From assembly GCA_020543525.1 (NCBI GenBank), contig JAHYIO010000001.1:2480001-2544000 (forward strand): 64,000 nucleotides of DNA, read 5' to 3'. The DNA comes from Coriolopsis trogii (taxonomy: Eukaryota > Basidiomycota > Agaricomycetes > Polyporales > Polyporaceae). The translations under genes and the position numbers were made by a program. A model generated the notes under the pieces. That model did no database searches. It was given only the letters and a program-made list of their open reading frames with translations, and was not told the origin of the DNA. Below, one piece after another: positions 12,763-57,055 of the stretch; position 1 is the first letter of the stretch, and each line of letters begins with the position of its first letter.

Positions 12763-14901
12763 ATGGGCGAAACCTGGTTTCAGCGTGAATTCCTTCAGCC
12801 CCGACGCCTGGCCTTTAACGTGATATTCTATGGCCTCCACCTATTCTTCTTCGCGTACGGATGGTACAGTCAGGTATGAGCAGAGTGTCGCTCAGCTGGT
12901 CATGACACCCCCTCATCAGTTGGCTCCTTTCCTAGGCCACCAACAAGAAGCTGTCCGCCCTCAACGGTTTAACGTGGTCCGTCTGGACGTCTCGAGGTGC
13001 TGGTCTTGTGCTTGCGTTCGATGGAGGCTTGATCCTCGTCCCCATGTTGCGGAATGTCATCCGTGTCGTCCGCCCCCGCATCACTTGGCTTTTCCCCGCC
13101 GACGAGAACATCTGGTTCCACAGACAGGTGGCCTACTCGATGGCCTTCTGGGCTATGGTCCACACCACGGCTCACTACGTCAACTTCTTCAATGTTGAGC
13201 GCACTCGTACGTCCCCGTCTTTCTTTTTGTGGCATGACAAGAATCAATGTGACTCACTCGACGTCAACAGAGGTCCGCCCCAACACCGCGTTGCAGATTC
13301 ACTACGCGCAAGCAGGAGGCATCAGTGGTCACTTCATGCTCCTCATCATGGTCCTCATGTACACCACGGCCCACCACAAGATTCGCCAACAGTGCTTCGA
13401 GGCCTTCTGGTACACGCACCATCTCGCGTTCTTCTTCATGATCGGTCTCTACGCCCATGCCACCGGATGCTTCGTCCGTGACTCCGCTGATCCCGAGTAC
13501 ATTCCCGCGTTCCCGTTCTACGGCACGACACACTGTCTCGGATATGAGAGCTGGCGATTCACCATCTGGCCTGGCATTATCTACTTTGGAGAGAGGATTT
13601 GGCGTGAGATTAGGGCTAGGCGTGCAACTCGCCTCAGCAAGGTTCTCGTTCACCCAAGCGGTAAGCCTTGCCCTGAACCTCGTAGCTGTTCCCATGGTGT
13701 TGACTTGATGTCCCATTCAGGCGCAATGGAACTGCGTATCATTAAGCCCAGCTTCAAGTACGTCGCCGGCCAGTGGTTGTTCATTCAAGTCCCGGACATC
13801 TCTGGTTTCCAGTGGCACCCGGTAGGCTTATATGATCCCTTAATATTCCACCTAGATACTAAACAGCCGGTCCAGTTCACCATTACGTCGGCGCCTGAGG
13901 ACCCCTACGTCTCCGTTCACATCCGTCAGGTCGGTGACTGGACCTATGCATTGGGAGAGCGTGTTGGTGCAGGCCCCCAGGTGGTTGCCTCCATGACCAA
14001 GGCAGCCCTGAAGGGTAGTGAGAAGGATGACAGCGTCTACGGTACTCGTGGCGACTTCGTCGAGATTGACAGCGCTGGTCGCAACCTGCCCGCTGTCCGT
14101 ATTGACGGGCCGTACGGTGCTCCGGCTGAGGACGTCTTCAACGTCGAGGTCGCCGTTCTCATTGGTGCCGGTATCGGTAAGGCACACTCTCCCTCATGTT
14201 TGGCGCGGAGATTCATGCATTTCCGCAGGTGTCACGCCGTTCGCGTCCATCCTCAAGCACATTTGGTACCGCCAGAAGAAGGGCACGCTTGGTTCCCTCA
14301 AGCGTGTCGAGTTCTTCTGGGTCTGCCGTGACGCTCCCTCGTTCGGTTGGTTCCAGACACTGCTCCAGGAGGTCGAGGCTGCCCAAGCTGATCGTGAGTG
14401 CTGTCCCTTGTACTCACGGCTGCCTCCATCTTACAGTATGTATCGCAGCCAACTTCCTCCGCATCAACATCTACTTGACGCAGAAGATTTCCGAGGACAT
14501 GCTCTGGAACATCGCTGTCAACGACGCGGGCGCTGAGTACGACCCGCTTACGCTCCTTCGTACTCGCACTATGTTCGGCCGTCCCGATTGGAAGGCGATT
14601 TACGGAAGGATGAGTCAGGCCATCCAAGCTGGTCAGTATCTTCCCGGAACCAGCGCACAGCTCAAGACCAAAGTCGGTGTAAGTAATCCAACTGGCTCAT
14701 GAGCGAGCCCTGGTATGCTCACGGGATTGCATGCGTAGACATACTTCTGTGGTCCTGGTGTCTTGGCGAAGGCAATCAAGGAGGCGTGCAACGAAGCCAA
14801 CTGTGCTGCCGTGGACTTCGCCTTTGCGAAGGTTCGTACTTCGCACGTAAGCTCAGATAATGTCTCGTGCTTACGTCCGTTTTGTGTAGGAACACTTCTA
14901 A
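12763..14901 (+). CDS. noxA: superoxide-generating NADPH oxidase (NoxA type)
   Basis: NADPH oxidase of roughly 550 residues that transfers electrons from cytosolic NADPH through FAD and two haems to oxygen; fungal members govern hyphal and fruiting differentiation. The start at 12763 gives MGETWFQREFLQPRRLAFNV, a typical NoxA opening without EF hands. Visible features in order: membrane helices; haem histidines in MVHTTAHYVNFF and WYTHHLAFFF; the FAD-binding HPFTITSAPEDPYVSVHIR (HP and FTITSAP joined across an intron); the NADPH-binding GAGIGVTPFASILKHIW, also across an intron; FFWVCRDAPSFGWF; and TYFCGPGVLAKAI. The last intron leaves a final exon encoding only EHF and the stop (14890-14901), matching the conserved KEHF/KENF ending. 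Confidence 0.93.
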
Positions 14902-37603: not shown

Positions 37604-39383
37604 TCACGCTGTCCGAACATTGATGTTAGCATCCGCCAACGCCTTCTTCACTTCATCTATCTCGACTTCGTGCCGATGGAAGATGCCTGCGGCCAGGGCC
37701 GCCTCGACGCCCGTCTTTTGGAACACTTCCACAAAGTGGGCGGCCTGACCTGCCCCGCTGCTGGCCACGACGGGTATCCGCACGTTCCGGCGGACGAGCT
37801 CGACGAGGGCGATATCGTACCCGAGACCAGTCCCGTCCCGGTCAATGCTGTTGAGGAGGATCTCACCAGCACCGAGCTTCTCGACTCCTCTGACGAGCTG
37901 GACGACCGAAAGCGGCCTGTCCTCTCGCCCACCGCGGACAGTGCACCTGTACCACCACGCCTTCCCGCGCTCGTTCTCCGGCCCGTCGGGGCTCCCGTGC
38001 ACGACCTCGTCCTTGTACGCGCCATCGTACCCGGGCTCGACATAGACACGGCGGGGGTCGACGGAGACGACGACGGCCTGGCGGCCGTACACTCTCGCGA
38101 TCGTCTCGATCGCGCTCGTCCCGTCGCCCTCCCCGACGCCGTCCGCGCTCGGGCGCGCGCGCATCTTCTCGACGGCGAAGACGGCCTCGGTGGCGATGCT
38201 GACCTTGTCCGCGCCCGCGCGGAAGTACGCGCCGGCGACCTCGAGCGCGGAGTGGGGGGTGCCGTCCGGGTCGACGGTGTCCTTGATGCCGCCGCCGATT
38301 GTGAGCGGGACGAAGACGGTCTCGGCGGCGGCGCGGACGACGGCGAGCATCGGCTGGTCGAGGAGGGGCGAGTGGCGGAAGGAGGTGATGTTCATGAGGC
38401 AGAGCTCGTCTGCCCCTTCGGCGTAGTATCGGGCGGCGAGCGCGACGGGCTTTCCGAGGTTGCGCACCGCGCCTGCGGCTTGGGCCTGCTCCCCACTGCC
38501 TGTGATGCTGTCTGCGTTTGTGGGCGCGGTACGTTCGCGAACGTCGTATTGGTCGCCCTTGGTGACCACGAGGTCGCCGTCGTCGTTTGAGCGGACGTCC
38601 ATGCACGCTATGATGCGCTTCGTGAACCCATCTTTGCCTTTTGGTGGCCGGGCGATGCGGGGGGTCGGAGGGCTCGTGGCACGGTCTGCTTCGGACTGCC
38701 GAAGCCAGGCATCGAGAACCTGGAGCCCAGCGAGGCCCGACTTTTCGGGGTGGAACTGGCAGGCAAAGACGTTGCCTTTGCGAACCGTGGCGAGGAAGAC
38801 TTCCTGTCCGTACTGCGTGGTGGCGTGTGCCCATTGGGCAGCTTCAGGGTGCTCCCACTCGTACGCCGCACGGAAAGAGTGGACGAAGTAGTACGATGAG
38901 CGCGGATCGAGCCCTTCGTGCGCCTTCTCGTCCGGATCGAGCAAGTCGACGGAGTTCCAGCCCATGTGGGGGACAGACTTGTCTGCGTTGCTAAAGAGCC
39001 CGATGTCGCTCGGGATGATGCCTAGGCCTTTGGAGGAGGGGGATTCCGCAGAGGAACGGAACAAGACTTGCATGCCTATGCAGATGCCGAAGTATGGTTT
39101 CCCCGATGCGATGTATTCGCGGAGGGGCTCGTAGAGCCCGCGCGACACGAGACCATCGATGGCTGACCCAAAGGCACCAACGCCAGGGAAGATGAGGCTC
39201 TAATGCGATATTTGACCACAAGGTCAGTGCTGCTGGTGCAGACATGGGGCTCTGTGCACTCACCGTAGCTTTCGCGAAATCAGCAGGCGAAGCTATCCAT
39301 TGGAACTCGTGACCGAGCTTGGTGAGGGTGTTCGCAAGGCTCTGAACGTTTCCTGCGCCGTAATCAAGGAGGTAGAGACCCAT
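37604..39383 (-). CDS. HIS7: imidazole glycerol phosphate synthase, HisH-HisF fusion
   Basis: Bifunctional histidine-pathway enzyme of 571 residues: an N-terminal glutaminase (HisH) fused to the HisF cyclase, the usual fungal form. It makes IGP and AICAR from PRFAR and glutamine. Exons 39383-39264 and 39199-37604. Start at MGLYLLDYGAGNVQSLAN; an in-frame upstream ATG at 39479 is less likely. Glutaminase residues: GICIGMQVLF (catalytic Cys) and CQFHPEKSG (His and Glu). The HisF barrel has IIACMDVRSND (catalytic Asp), ITIGGGIKDTVDPDG-like LTIGGGIKD, LLNSIDRDGTGLGYD (second Asp) and VVASSGAGQAAHF. Divergent from SER3, with TGACTC sites in the shared promoter. Confidence 0.95.
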
Positions 39384-51741: not shown

Positions 51742-54199
51742 TCATGACAGCTTCCGCCTCTTGCCAACGCCGGGAGCACCTGAAGTCGCGGTTTTGCGTT
51801 TGACACTCTCCACCAAGCTCTGCAAGCTAGGCTGTTGGGCTTCTTCGTTCCTGCGCTTGGTCGCGGTGGAGTCGCGATTCCCGGATGCCTTCTTCTGCTG
51901 TCTACGAGAGCGTTCGTCCAATAGCGCGGACATACTCTTCGTCTTCTTGAAGCTGTAGATGACGATGTGAGCGACTGTGGTTGAACGTACGGATGAGCCC
52001 GTATGCTTACCGAGGATTGCTCGGATCAATGGCATAGGTATGGTCCTCGAGAACGGCTTTGAATCGCTCGTCTTTGACGTCGATCGAGAAGTCTTCCTGT
52101 AGATCGAGGTCGCCATCGTCCTGAGTCTTCTTGCCCTTCTTGCCTTTTTTCTTCTTTCCACCCTTCTCGGCGCGCAGGACGGCCTTCATGTCGAAGTGCT
52201 TGACCTCGCCCTTCGGATTATCGGACTCGGCAAGCAGAGCGAGCTCCTCCGCCGTCGACTCCACCCGAGCAGGACGATCTTCATCATCCTCATCCGCAGT
52301 CTTCGACTTGCCTTTACCCTTCCTAACTTTGCCCTTGCCTTTCTTGATGGACTCTTCTTCGACCTCCTGTGCGTCGTCATCCTCGTCACTGTCGCCGCCA
52401 AAGAAGTCATCGTCGATGCTCTTCTTCGCCTGCTTACGCTCCTCCTTGTCCTCCTTGACGCGTTCTCGCAGCTCCTCCTTGCGCTTCTTCTTCTTCTCGC
52501 GCATCTTCCGCTGGTACTTCTCGAGCGTCGTCTCGTCCTTGTCGTCCTTGGCCGCGCTCAGGCCGGGGGTGAACGTGATCTCCATGTCCACGTCATCGTC
52601 GTCGCCCGCTTTGCTATTTCCCCAGCCCTCGGGCATGGTGTCGTCTCCGCCGCCAAGAAGGAGCGCGCGAAGCTTGTCGCGTTCCGAGTCCTTTGCGTGC
52701 TTCTTCTTGTCCTTCGCCTTGGGAGGCCCGGCAACGTCATCTCCTTCGTCTTCGGAAGACGAAGAGGCGATGTACGCGCGGAAATCGTTTTCTTCGATCT
52801 CCTTGCGCGTGAGGACGCGACGCGTGACTTGCGCACGCTCCGGTTCGTCCTCGTCCCAGGTCAATTTGACCTTCGAGTGACGTAGTGCCTGCGTTTTGAA
52901 AAGCGTCAGCTTGGGACAAGCGTAGAAGAGCTTAAGACAGAACACACGTCGGTGACGAAGTCAACGGGCTTGTAGGGGACGCTTAAATCATCGTTAGCTT
53001 CATCCCTGCAATCAATGATCAGACAGAGGTTGTTAACTGGGGAGGAGAGCGTTACGCACCGGAAGTCATCGTCAAAGGTCATTTCATCCGGAACGAAGCT
53101 GAGATCGAAGACATTGGCGGACCGTTCGAGTTCTGTACCATCCAACTCATTGAAGATGTGTGAAGCGGCTTCAACGGAATCACATTCCACGATGGCATAG
53201 TAGTATCTACATAATCCTGAATAAGGGGAAGTCCTACTCCTGGAGAGGCTAACATACCGAAGTCGCTCGAGTTGATACTTGCGAAGAGCATCTTCGTCGT
53301 AGTCCTCGCCCTCTCCAAGCTCATAAACAGTGCGTTCGTTGATGTCTTCCGGATCCATCTCCCGCTTTTTCTTGAACACCTCGGGCGGGGGACCTTCTTT
53401 CTCCTCTCTCGCCATGCGCTCCTTCCCAAACTGACTGGGATACACCCTGACACTGAGGACCTTACCGCGTACCACCGGTACGGAGGAACCCTTGGCAGTG
53501 CCATTTTCCTTCGAGCCAGAGGCAACGGCGGTGGCGGAGGGGGAAACGAGGGACGAGAATATCTTATAGAGATGGATAGCACGTACGTGATCCCAGTCAA
53601 GGTTGACAACGGCAATGCGGCGCGTGCGCTCAGCCTGCGCCAAGCCCTGAGCTGCCTCTGGATTGGCTTGAGCATACGCGGCGGCCTGCGCATCCAAGTC
53701 GGCGTAGTGATCCTCGTTGAGGTCCACTTCAGCAGAATCGTCAGGCACGGGGATGGGCTGTGTTATGTCGCGCCCGAGAGTGATTATGCCATCGGCATCG
53801 CTGTCATCATCGCTTTGTGCGCCAGTAGGCTGGTCGTCTTCTTCGTCGGATGACTCGAGGAGGACCTCTCCACGAGCGTAGTCCGGACCAGGCTTGACTT
53901 CGAGTTGGGCCTCCTCTTCGTCCTCAAGACGGTAGAATCTACGTAGGTTGTCGTGCTCGTGATCATCCGCGAGGGATCTCCCATACTTGTCGACACGCGC
54001 TGATCATCTCCGAGCATGAGAGAGAAGCGGTGTGCACAGAACAGGTGGTCGGCGTACCTGCACTCTTTTTGCCTTTCTTCTTGCCCTTGGCGTCGAAGAA
54101 GTCCTTGAACCGCTCGTCAACGACGACCTTGTTCTTGTCTTTCTTTATGCGCCTGAAGCGGGGGTCAGTCTTCAGACGGGCGAAACGAGGGTCAGACAT
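51742..54199 (-). CDS. ESF1: ESF1, pre-rRNA processing factor of the small-subunit processome
   Basis: Nucleolar protein for 18S rRNA maturation. Start MSDPRFARLKTDPRFRRIKK, the invariant Esf1 opening, then KDFFDAKGKKKGKKS. The central domain reads RRIAVVNLDWDHVRAIHLYK, VLSVRVYPSQFGKERMAREE, GPPPEVFKKK, YYYAIVECDSVEAASHIFNE and LDGTELERSANVFDLSFVPD. The tail is highly charged, with KRKEELRERVKEDKEERKQA, and includes IDVKDERFKAVLEDHTYAID before the last exon FKKTKSMSALLDERSRRQQ. The C-terminus ends GVGKRRKLS. Several small introns break the region 52930-53260. Convergent with the EED-like gene. Confidence 0.93.
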
Positions 54200-54647: not shown

Positions 54648-55567
54648 ATGTTCTCCAACTTCCTCCGCCTTGCGGTCGCAGTCGCCCTCATCGGGCAGGT
54701 TCTTGCTAGGCCCATGCCCATGCCCATGCGTGTAAGTACTCGTCTACCGTATCGGGTCGTCCAGTCGTTGATCGCTCTATGCAGCGCGCAGCAGAGGCTC
54801 GCGCTCTGGGAGACATCGAGGTCATCGCCGCATACAGACGCGCGGTTCCTGTCGAGCAGCCCGCCATGTCTGTGAACGGCGAGATTGTTCCCTACAAGAA
54901 TCCCGACGCTAAGCAGCGGCGCGAGGTCCCCGTCGAACAGCCCGCTATGTCTGTCAACGGTCAAATTGTTCCTTACAAGAACCCGGACGCCAAGCAGCGC
55001 CGTGAGGTCCCCGTTGAGCAGCCCGCTATGTCTGTGAACGGTCAGATCGTCCCCTACAAGAACCCAGACGCCAAGCAGAGGCGTGAGGTTCCTGTGGAAC
55101 AGCCTGCCATGTCAGTCAACGGCCAGATCGTTCCTTACAGGAACCCGGAGGCGAAGGAGAGACGCGAAGTCCCTGTCGAGCAACCTGCCATGTCCGTCAA
55201 TGGCCAGATCGTCCCCTACAAGAACCCGGACGCCAAACAGAGGCGCGAGGTGCCCGTCGAACAGCCCGCTATGTCTGTCAACGGTCAGATTGTCCCCTAC
55301 AAGAACCCCGAGGCGAAGGAGAGACGTGAAGTTCCCGTCGAGCAGCCCGCTATGTCTGTCAACGGTCAAATTGTTCCTTACAAGAACCCGGACGCCAAGC
55401 AGCGCCGTGAGGTCCCCGTTGAGCAGCCCGCCATGTCTGTGAACGGCCAGGTTGTCCCCTACAAGAACCCCGAGGCGAAGGAGAGACGTGAGGTTCCCGT
55501 CGACCAACCCGCTATGTCCGTGAACGGTCAGATCGTTCCTTACAAGAACCCTGATGCTGGCAACTGA
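54648..55567 (+). CDS. secreted precursor with nine 27-residue repeats and Kex2 sites
   Basis: 288-residue secreted protein from exons 54648-54731 and 54785-55567. A signal peptide (residues 1-20, MFSNFLRLAVAVALIGQVLA) precedes a short spacer and nine tandem repeats (residues 48-288). Each unit is 27 residues: VPVEQPAMSVNG, then (E/Q)(I/V)VPY(K/R)NP(D/E)AK(Q/E), then RR, the Kex2 cleavage signal. Two further RR sites lie in the spacer (MRR and AYRR). Cleavage would release eight peptides of about 25 residues and a C-terminal one ending PDAGN. No cysteines and no membrane segment. The architecture is that of fungal Kex2-processed repeat proteins (repellents, dikaritin-type precursors). No UstY-like or tyrosinase gene lies nearby. 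Family known, product unknown. Confidence 0.9.
54842..55564 (+). repeat. nine tandem 81-bp coding repeats
   Basis: Eight full 81-bp units begin at 54842 and every 81 bp after; the ninth starts at 55490 and ends before the stop. Unit endings follow the order DAKQ, DAKQ, DAKQ, EAKE, DAKQ, EAKE, DAKQ, EAKE, DAGN. Units 2 and 7 are almost identical in DNA, as are parts of 5-6 and 7-8, which suggests exchange between units. Most differences elsewhere are silent. Confidence 0.95.
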
Positions 55568-55950: not shown

Positions 55951-56796
55951 TCATGAGATCTTGGCCTGTGAGAAGTCCAGCTCCGGATGCGCTTCTTGGA
56001 ATTTCTTCAATGCCTAACCTAGGATTAGCGCACAACGACCTTCGAACGGGAGAGCGACTTACTTCCATCTTCTTCATTTCATCCGAGGTTGGCTTCCCCA
56101 TTTGCTGTAAGAGTTGGATATCCTGAGTGTCTATCAAGGACTACGACAGAGTGCGTTACCTTCTGCTGGTTGTCGAACTGGAAGGCTCGTCAGGATATGA
56201 CCCATAGAGATACCCACTAGAACTCACCATCATTTTCTCGACCATGGCCCTGGTTTCCCCGTCAAGGTCACTCAACTTGCTGTTCTCAGGCTGTATCTTG
56301 GTGGTGTCCAGCTTTGGATGGTGGGTCAGAACGTTCTCCCACCATTGCTGCTGGTTCAGCTTCTCGAGATGTATGAGGACGCTCTCTTGATCCTCTGAAG
56401 TCGAGTCAGCCAATTTTTCGATGACAGCATCGCGTATAAGACATACCAAGTGTCCAGGTACATTCGTCAGTCTTGACCTCTTTGCAGAGCTCTCCGGCCA
56501 TGATAGGTTCCTTGCCCTTGAATCCGACGCTCAGCTTCTTCTTCTGGATCACGACGCTGAGATCGCGAGCCCGAGTGCCCTTTGGCACTGGGACGGTGAT
56601 ATCAACGTCTCCGAGCTGCTGAGTCCATTTGTATGGCAGCGCTATTGAGAGAATGACATGTTGGTGCTTCGCATACTGAGACGGTCGATCAGAGGGCCGC
56701 ACCCGCCTGCTCAGCCGCTTCGCGTGCACGATCGGCTTTGTCGCGTTCTTCCCTTTGCTCGGGAGTGAGTTTGTCGTAGTCGTCGTTCGCAGACAT
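55951..56796 (-). CDS. NudC-like nuclear movement protein (CS domain)
   Basis: Homologue of Aspergillus NudC, an Hsp90-linked co-chaperone needed for dynein function and nuclear migration. Start [20 protein letters not shown]. The CS domain reads [20 protein letters not shown], then [20 protein letters not shown] and [20 protein letters not shown]. The NudC C-terminal part follows: [38 protein letters not shown] and [19 protein letters not shown], ending in [12 protein letters not shown]. Small introns separate these blocks, one leaving an exon coding only FDNQQK. Divergent from the Siz/PIAS gene with 260 bp between starts. Confidence 0.92.
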
Positions 56797-57055
56797 TTGT
56801 GAGTGGATGTGAGTGGCAAAGATGGATTGCAGATAGCCACAGAAGCCACAGAGACCTTGAGGCAGGGCGATGCGTCCGAGTACCCGAGCGCGATCTTCGA
56901 AGTGAGTAGAATGAGCGCGTCATTCCACGTGATGTCAGCCTTTGGCAGGAGTTTCCCACGAGCAGCTTGGCAGAGTCCCGTTTCCTGTCGTCTACCACAG
57001 CGTCGCCGTCGCTTTCCCAGCCATCCGCTCTTCATCCGGCACCTCCTCCTTCTTC

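What the first reader, a model, noticed from the sequence alone, without database searches (positions are those of the whole stretch)
54648..55567. Nine-repeat Kex2-type secreted precursor with an unrecognised peptide
A signal peptide followed by nine near-identical 27-residue units, each closed by RR, is the layout of a Kex2-processed precursor. The predicted peptide is about 25 residues, has an invariant core MSVNGQIVPYKNP with one tyrosine, and lacks cysteine. I recognise the architecture but not this peptide. The DNA of the units differs mostly at silent sites, so the peptide sequence looks conserved by selection. Possible roles are surface repellent, signal peptide, or RiPP precursor; none is proven. 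No UstY-like or tyrosinase gene lies in this window.
Basis: partly seen in the sequence, partly recalled or inferred. Interest (0 to 1): 0.88.

Follow-up and report, generated by a model that had tools for sequence, protein, structure and literature searches.

The report
Polypore copy of known mushroom peptide precursor
This gene makes a secreted protein that is probably cut into nine copies of a small peptide, and it belongs to a peptide-precursor family already described in mushroom-forming fungi, whose job is still unknown.

Summary
The gene is real: two exons, 288 residues, a signal-like N-terminus and nine repeat units, the first eight closed by RR. Of 24 variable columns over 69 nt, 20 are third codon positions, so the peptide is conserved. 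The Kex2 reading holds; "unrecognised peptide" does not. The commonest unit aligns without gaps to the mass-spectrometry-proven peptide of Coprinopsis cinerea KEP 497993, pyro-QIPAELPTKSINGNIEPY (PMC9769878): 9 of 18 identical; 0 of 20,000 shuffles reach the score. A profile search lists 18 relatives, 3 of them in the profile, mostly Agaricomycetes where named, plus the ascomycete Cyphellophora. It is probably Umemura's type #7, found in 49 genera (PMC7329392). The host is Polyporaceae-like. The gene was found at one locus, a kexin gene exists, and no UstYa or tyrosinase match lies on this contig, so a cyclised RiPP is unlikely. The C. cinerea knockout had no visible phenotype. Differences here: units start with E or A instead of Q, and a 7-residue tail follows the conserved PY. 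New member of a known kind; function open.

The parts
54648..54731 (+). Exon 1: likely signal peptide (MFSNFLRLAVAVALIGQVLA) and start of the propeptide (RPMPMPMR)
   Evidence: ATG and sequence; 11-residue hydropathy mean up to 2.55; similar MFSR...GQVLA N-terminus in P0003 and MF...GQVLSSP in P0002. No signal-peptide predictor was available.
54732..54784 (+). 53-bp intron, GTAAGT...ATGCAG
   Evidence: Consensus splice sites; removal keeps the frame and gives ...PMPMR|RAAEAR. Not checked against RNA.
54785..54841 (+). Exon 2 start: propeptide RAAEARALGDIEVIAAYRR, RR at residues 28-29 (across the junction) and 46-47
   Evidence: resembles ...L.TIP.Y.KR before the first unit in several relatives
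54842..55489 (+). Units 1-8, 27 residues each, [EA]VPVEQPAMSVNG[QE][IV]VPY[KR]NP[DE]AK[QE]RR
55490..55567 (+). Unit 9, EVPVDQPAMSVNGQIVPYKNPDAGN, ends at TGA without RR

Best explanation
A single-locus, Polyporaceae-like member of the agaricomycete KEP family typified by Coprinopsis cinerea KEP 497993. The preproprotein enters the secretory pathway (inferred). Kexin cuts after the ten RR sites (inferred). Kex1-like carboxypeptidases remove RR, and probably much of the tail, towards a core ending ...VPY or ...VPYK, as seen in C. cinerea (inferred by homology). One precursor gives up to nine linear peptides, [E/A]VPV[E/D]QPAMSVNG[Q/E][I/V]VPY plus a tail of varying length. They are exported, and most likely act in interactions with other organisms or between hyphae, not in axenic growth or fruiting (weak inference from the knockout of the C. 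cinerea member).
For: Gapless match to the C. cinerea peptide: the commonest unit has 9 of 18 identical, BLOSUM62 score 56 against a maximum of 40 in 20,000 shuffles; five of the six distinct unit sequences were tested (8 or 9 of 18 identical) and none of 20,000 shuffles of each reached its score (the sixth, unit 6, has the same 18-residue core as unit 2). Profile search: 18 proteins, E 1.2e-8 or better, of which 3 were in the profile and 15 are new; each of the 18 has at least one 18-mer over the score threshold. Among type #7's listed Pfam names, Cytomega_UL20A is the top hit of this protein, DUF2188 is a weak hit of P0003 and PF09954 is precomputed for P0004 (that this is DUF2188 shows). 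Type #7 genera include Lentinus, Polyporus, Trametes, Dichomitus, Coprinopsis and Cyphellophora, at 1.03 copies per strain, 0 of 64 near DUF3328 genes. One locus here. A kexin gene on C3 (PDB 'Kexin' 1ot5, E 9e-71). No UstYa match on the contig. Units under purifying selection. PMC9769878: peptides found by LC-MS/MS, lost in the KEP knockout, no visible phenotype, and no antibacterial activity of the synthetic peptides tested against five strains.
Against: Identity to the C. cinerea peptide is only 8-9 of 18. No protein named as polypore was returned (only the about 8,000 candidates sharing most words were scored), so no polypore orthologue was compared. In C. cinerea the KEP 497993 peptides persisted in the kex knockouts where they could be tested, including kex2a/c (the authors argue redundancy among three KEX2), so cutting by one particular kexin is not proven even there. 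Units here start with E or A, so the Gln-derived pyroglutamate cap is not possible. A tail of 0-1 residue before KR/RR is the rule in relatives (48 of 74 rows), against 7 here. Only 1 of the 4 Pfam names over cut-off on this protein is in the type #7 list, and the type's profile logo could not be seen. No expression or peptide data for this species. The function step rests on a negative knockout in another order.
Confidence: 0.85

Rival explanations
1. Precursor of a modified or cyclic RiPP (dikaritin type, UstYa oxidases acting on the Tyr).
For: Kex2-repeat layout with one Tyr per unit; the genome holds UstYa genes (10 matches) and tyrosinase-like genes (7 matches).
Against: None of those 17 matches is on contig C1. 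Type #7 has 0 of 64 members near DUF3328 genes (membership inferred). The C. cinerea peptides reported are linear with only a pyro-Glu change.
Confidence: 0.04
2. Surface-active repellent peptide of the Ustilago maydis Rep1 kind.
For: Multi-copy secreted peptides from a Kex2-type precursor, without cysteine.
Against: Units look disordered in the model (mean pLDDT 49.9). Knockout of the C. cinerea member showed no macroscopic growth or fruiting defect. Rep1 peptides are reported as 37 residues (passage). No sequence comparison with Rep1 was made.
Confidence: 0.06
3. Alpha-pheromone-like mating peptide.
For: Kex2-repeat layout as in ascomycete alpha factors; an STE13-like (DPPIV_N) gene is present.
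Against: No run of XA/XP dipeptides after RR and no tryptophan; PMC6339444 states that basidiomycete sexual pheromones are not made this way (passage); type #7 has no pheromone annotation.
Confidence: 0.03
4. The RR sites are not used and the whole repeat protein is a structural wall or matrix protein.
For: No peptide evidence in this species.
Against: In relatives 50 of 74 core rows directly follow KR or RR (the rest include single-R and off-register rows), and the C. cinerea member yields peptides in vivo.
Confidence: 0.03

Closest known systems
Coprinopsis cinerea KEP 497993 (Vogt et al. 2022, PMC9769878)
   Same: Repeated core aligned without gaps over 18 residues (P3, E5, P7, S10, N12, G13, I15, P17, Y18 identical in the commonest unit); the detected peptide QVPVDEPA matches EVPVDQPA of unit 9 at 6 of 8 positions and the other units tested at 5 of 8.
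   Different: Here the first residue is E or A, not Q; a 7-residue tail follows PY; RR only. I saw only its printed peptides, not the full precursor.
KEP type #7 (G-1/P-2) of Umemura 2020 (PMC7329392)
   Same: Genus list includes polypores and Cyphellophora; near single copy; no DUF3328 neighbours; Tyr-rich profile; Cytomega_UL20A shared.
   Different: Profile logo and Table S2 not seen, so membership is inferred, not shown.
Cyphellophora attinorum AB675_10866 (P0001)
   Same: MSVNGQVVPYKN, a 12-mer identical to unit 8 here (read); long tail after PY.
   Different: Ascomycete; units mostly Q-first with an extra residue near the start; over the 18-mer its best identity is 11 of 18, no better than several agarics.
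Ustilago maydis Rep1 and ustiloxin precursors
   Same: Kex2-repeat layout only (paper passages and recall).
   Different: No UstYa match on the contig; sequences not compared.

Membership tests
KEX2-processed repeat proteins (KEPs) | N-terminal signal peptide | tested here: inconclusive
   Hydrophobic stretch and VLA before RP by eye; no trained predictor run
KEX2-processed repeat proteins (KEPs) | Near-identical internal repeats | tested here: met
   Nine units
KEX2-processed repeat proteins (KEPs) | Dibasic sites between repeats | tested here: met
   RR after 8 of 9 units, plus two upstream
KEX2-processed repeat proteins (KEPs) | Peptides released in vivo | not testable with these tools
   Needs peptidomics of this fungus
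KEP 497993 family | Core x-[IV]-P-x-E-x(6)-N-G-x-[IV]-x-P-Y (my summary, not a published motif) bounded by dibasic sites | tested here: met
   8 of 9 units fit; unit 9 has D for E and ends at the stop codon
KEP 497993 family | N-terminal Gln giving pyroglutamate | tested here: not met
   E in 8 of 9 units, A in unit 1. Not treated as defining: relatives P0006, P0008 and P0012 also have D- or E-first units
Umemura type #7 | BlastP cluster membership | not tested
   Table S2 not readable here; indirect evidence only
Dikaritin RiPP precursor | UstYa gene in the cluster | tested here: not met
   10 UstYa matches in the genome, on C33, C5 and C28, none on C1

The most novel reading that the evidence does not exclude
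Polypore members form a distinct maturation variant: by replacing the N-terminal Gln with Glu and adding a 7-residue tail, the peptide escapes Gln-derived pyroglutamate capping and is released as a longer, differently trimmed ligand. This long form, not the agaric short form, is the one shared with the ascomycete Cyphellophora, pointing to a role common to two fungal phyla. Against it: only one polypore was seen, Cyphellophora is Q-first, and its 18-mer identity (11 of 18) is no better than that of several agarics.
Probability: 0.15. Interest if true: 0.55.

Novelty: new member of a known kind. Interest (0 to 1): 0.3.

Why it matters
If it is type #7, it belongs to the KEP type found in the most genera of that survey (49), for which my searches showed no assigned function. 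This copy adds a uniform long-tail, Glu-first form under strong purifying selection, which helps to tell the conserved parts (P-x-E and NG-x-[IV]-x-PY) from the free ones. It does not open a new kind of system.

Tried and rejected
Pfam: 7 families listed and 4 over cut-off on this protein (best Cytomega_UL20A, 61.5 bits), each with zero stretches passing on their own; rejected as repeat-driven chance hits. Only one of the 4 names is in the type #7 list.

Structure: AlphaFold on the nine units with 10 of the 18 relatives gave mean pLDDT 49.9, pTM 0.15 and no secondary structure; read as disordered; no fold search made. No PDB sequence relative at E 1 for two units.

Second kexin: the P-domain match on C1 (L015, 24.9 bits, over the cut-off of 21) lies beside frames that look to me like an alpha-galactosidase (by eye) and was dropped; only the C3 gene is counted. 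A search with its catalytic piece found only itself; C. cinerea has three KEX2, so divergent copies may be missed. L014 and L015 were first read on the wrong strand, then on the right one.

Glutaminyl cyclase: no PF05096 match. PF04389 gives 11 matches of mixed M28 peptidases; none was singled out as a cyclase.

Counts use a score threshold and include off-register 18-mers, so column tallies there (Gly13 in 62 of 62) are partly built in. The window's preceding 'RR' was set by hand in that script.

Papers: PMC9769878 read as abstract, Results and Discussion; PMC7329392 one section (two parts) and passages; PMC6339444 passages only; all others only as search listings. Of six core strings, one (SINGNIEPY) was found, in PMC9769878 only; '497993' with Coprinopsis and peptide occurs in that paper only.

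Full report
The feature. At 54648-55567 (+) lies a two-exon gene: exon 1 54648-54731, a 53-bp intron 54732-54784 with GTAAGT and CAG ends, exon 2 54785-55567. The spliced protein has 288 residues: MFSNFLRLAVAVALIGQVLA as likely signal, a propeptide ending ...IEVIAAYRR, then nine units. Units 1-8 are 27 residues and end in RR; unit 9 has 25 and ends PDAGN at the stop. Splicing itself creates an RR at residues 28-29. The array gives three of the four Tandem Repeats Finder rows of the 64-kb window.

Selection. Across 36 unit pairs pS is 0.60 and pN 0.052 (pairs not independent). Over the 69 nt shared by all nine units, 2, 2 and 20 of 23 columns vary at codon positions 1, 2 and 3. Units 2 and 7 differ at only 3 of 69 positions while the other 35 pairs differ at 7-15, so local copying within the array also occurs. 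The peptide, not the DNA, is what is kept.

Host. A HIS7 frame 15 kb away (37604-39148, -) matches Lentinus tigrinus, Polyporus arcularius, Trametes and Dichomitus at 83-88% (best 120 of 7,922 listed): a Polyporaceae-like polypore. Upstream of the KEP gene is an ESF1 gene on the minus strand (RRM_ESF1 in 52906-53748; a further piece up to 54199 is assigned by eye and had no Pfam hit). Downstream is a CS-domain gene on the minus strand (56406-57035), probably nudC-like by eye. The genome has 38.8 Mb in 39 contigs.

Identity of the peptide. A single-sequence search gave 3 relatives. A profile of these and the window protein gave 18, that is 15 new; both searches scored only the about 8,000 candidates sharing most words. 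Ten bear names: Amanita thiersii, A. muscaria, Lentinula edodes, L. raphanica, L. lateritia, Mycena alexandri, Hymenopellis radicata, Russula decolorans, Agrocybe chaxingu and the ascomycete Cyphellophora attinorum; eight are unnamed. Most of their units align without gaps, typically QIPAEQAVKSPNGQIVPY, then 0-1 residue, then KR or RR (48 of 74 rows; units). The printed peptide of C. cinerea KEP 497993, QIPAELPTKSINGNIEPY (PMC9769878), aligns to EVPVEQPAMSVNGQIVPY with 9 of 18 identical; for five of six distinct units none of 20,000 shuffles reaches the observed score. So the peptide belongs to a family already in print. It is probably type #7 (G-1/P-2) of PMC7329392: 64 proteins, 49 genera including Trametes, Lentinus, Polyporus, Dichomitus, Coprinopsis and Cyphellophora, 0 of 64 near DUF3328 genes. 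Chance Pfam names of that type recur here: Cytomega_UL20A on this protein and DUF2188 on P0003 (weak) and P0004; three other names over cut-off on this protein are not in its list. I could not see the type's profile, so this step is inferred.

What is known of function. In C. cinerea three peptides of KEP 497993 were found: pyro-QVPVDEPA in culture fluid and mycelium, and pyro-QIPAELPTKSINGNIEPY with and without K mainly in young caps. They vanish in the KEP knockout, which grows and fruits normally; the synthetic peptides tested inhibited none of five bacterial strains. They persist in the kex knockouts that could be tested, which the authors put down to redundancy of three KEX2 enzymes. The authors propose a role with the biotic environment. 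I adopt that, weakly.

Machinery. One kexin gene is clear (C3; a piece matches PDB 'Kexin' at E 9e-71). An STE13-like gene is on C30. UstYa (10 matches) and tyrosinase (7 matches) occur in the genome but not on contig C1. The KEP is found at one locus.

What differs here. Eight of nine units start with E and one with A instead of Q, so Gln-derived pyroglutamate is not possible; a 7-residue tail follows PY (KNPDAKQ or variants; KNPDAGN at the end). The Mycena relative P0006 has D-first units with a 7-residue tail before R or RR, and P0014 (unnamed source) has a 7-residue tail with Q first, so the two traits are not strictly tied. P0014 has the closest core (14 of 18). Cyphellophora shares the 12-mer MSVNGQVVPYKN with unit 8, but over the 18-mer it reaches only 11 of 18, as do P0002, P0003, P0010 and P0013.

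Verdict. A genuine, well-formed KEP gene; new member of a known family of unknown function. Interest modest.

Noticed in passing
P0001 (Cyphellophora attinorum) versus window 55409-55489: An ascomycete protein on a 978-kb contig carries MSVNGQVVPYKN, identical to unit 8 of this polypore gene; possible transfer between phyla (Umemura also lists Cyphellophora in type #7).
   Followed up: partly
window 54842-55567: Units alternate DAKQ and EAKE from unit 3 to unit 8, and units 2 and 7 differ at only 3 of 69 nt: signs of block duplication or conversion inside the array.
   Followed up: partly
G000:C33:1815914-1817006 (L006, L007): Two UstYa matches facing each other, and five more on C5: candidate RiPP clusters elsewhere in this genome.
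   Followed up: no
protein searches: No protein named as polypore was returned although PMC7329392 lists several polypore genera in type #7; perhaps a limit of the word-based search or of gene models.
   Followed up: no
window 13054-14331 (+): Ferric reductase-like frame (FAD_binding_8 and Ferric_reduct).
   Followed up: no
window 54648-55567, Pfam: Repeat proteins can exceed Pfam gathering scores by summed weak hits (UL20A 61.5 bits with no stretch passing alone).
   Followed up: yes
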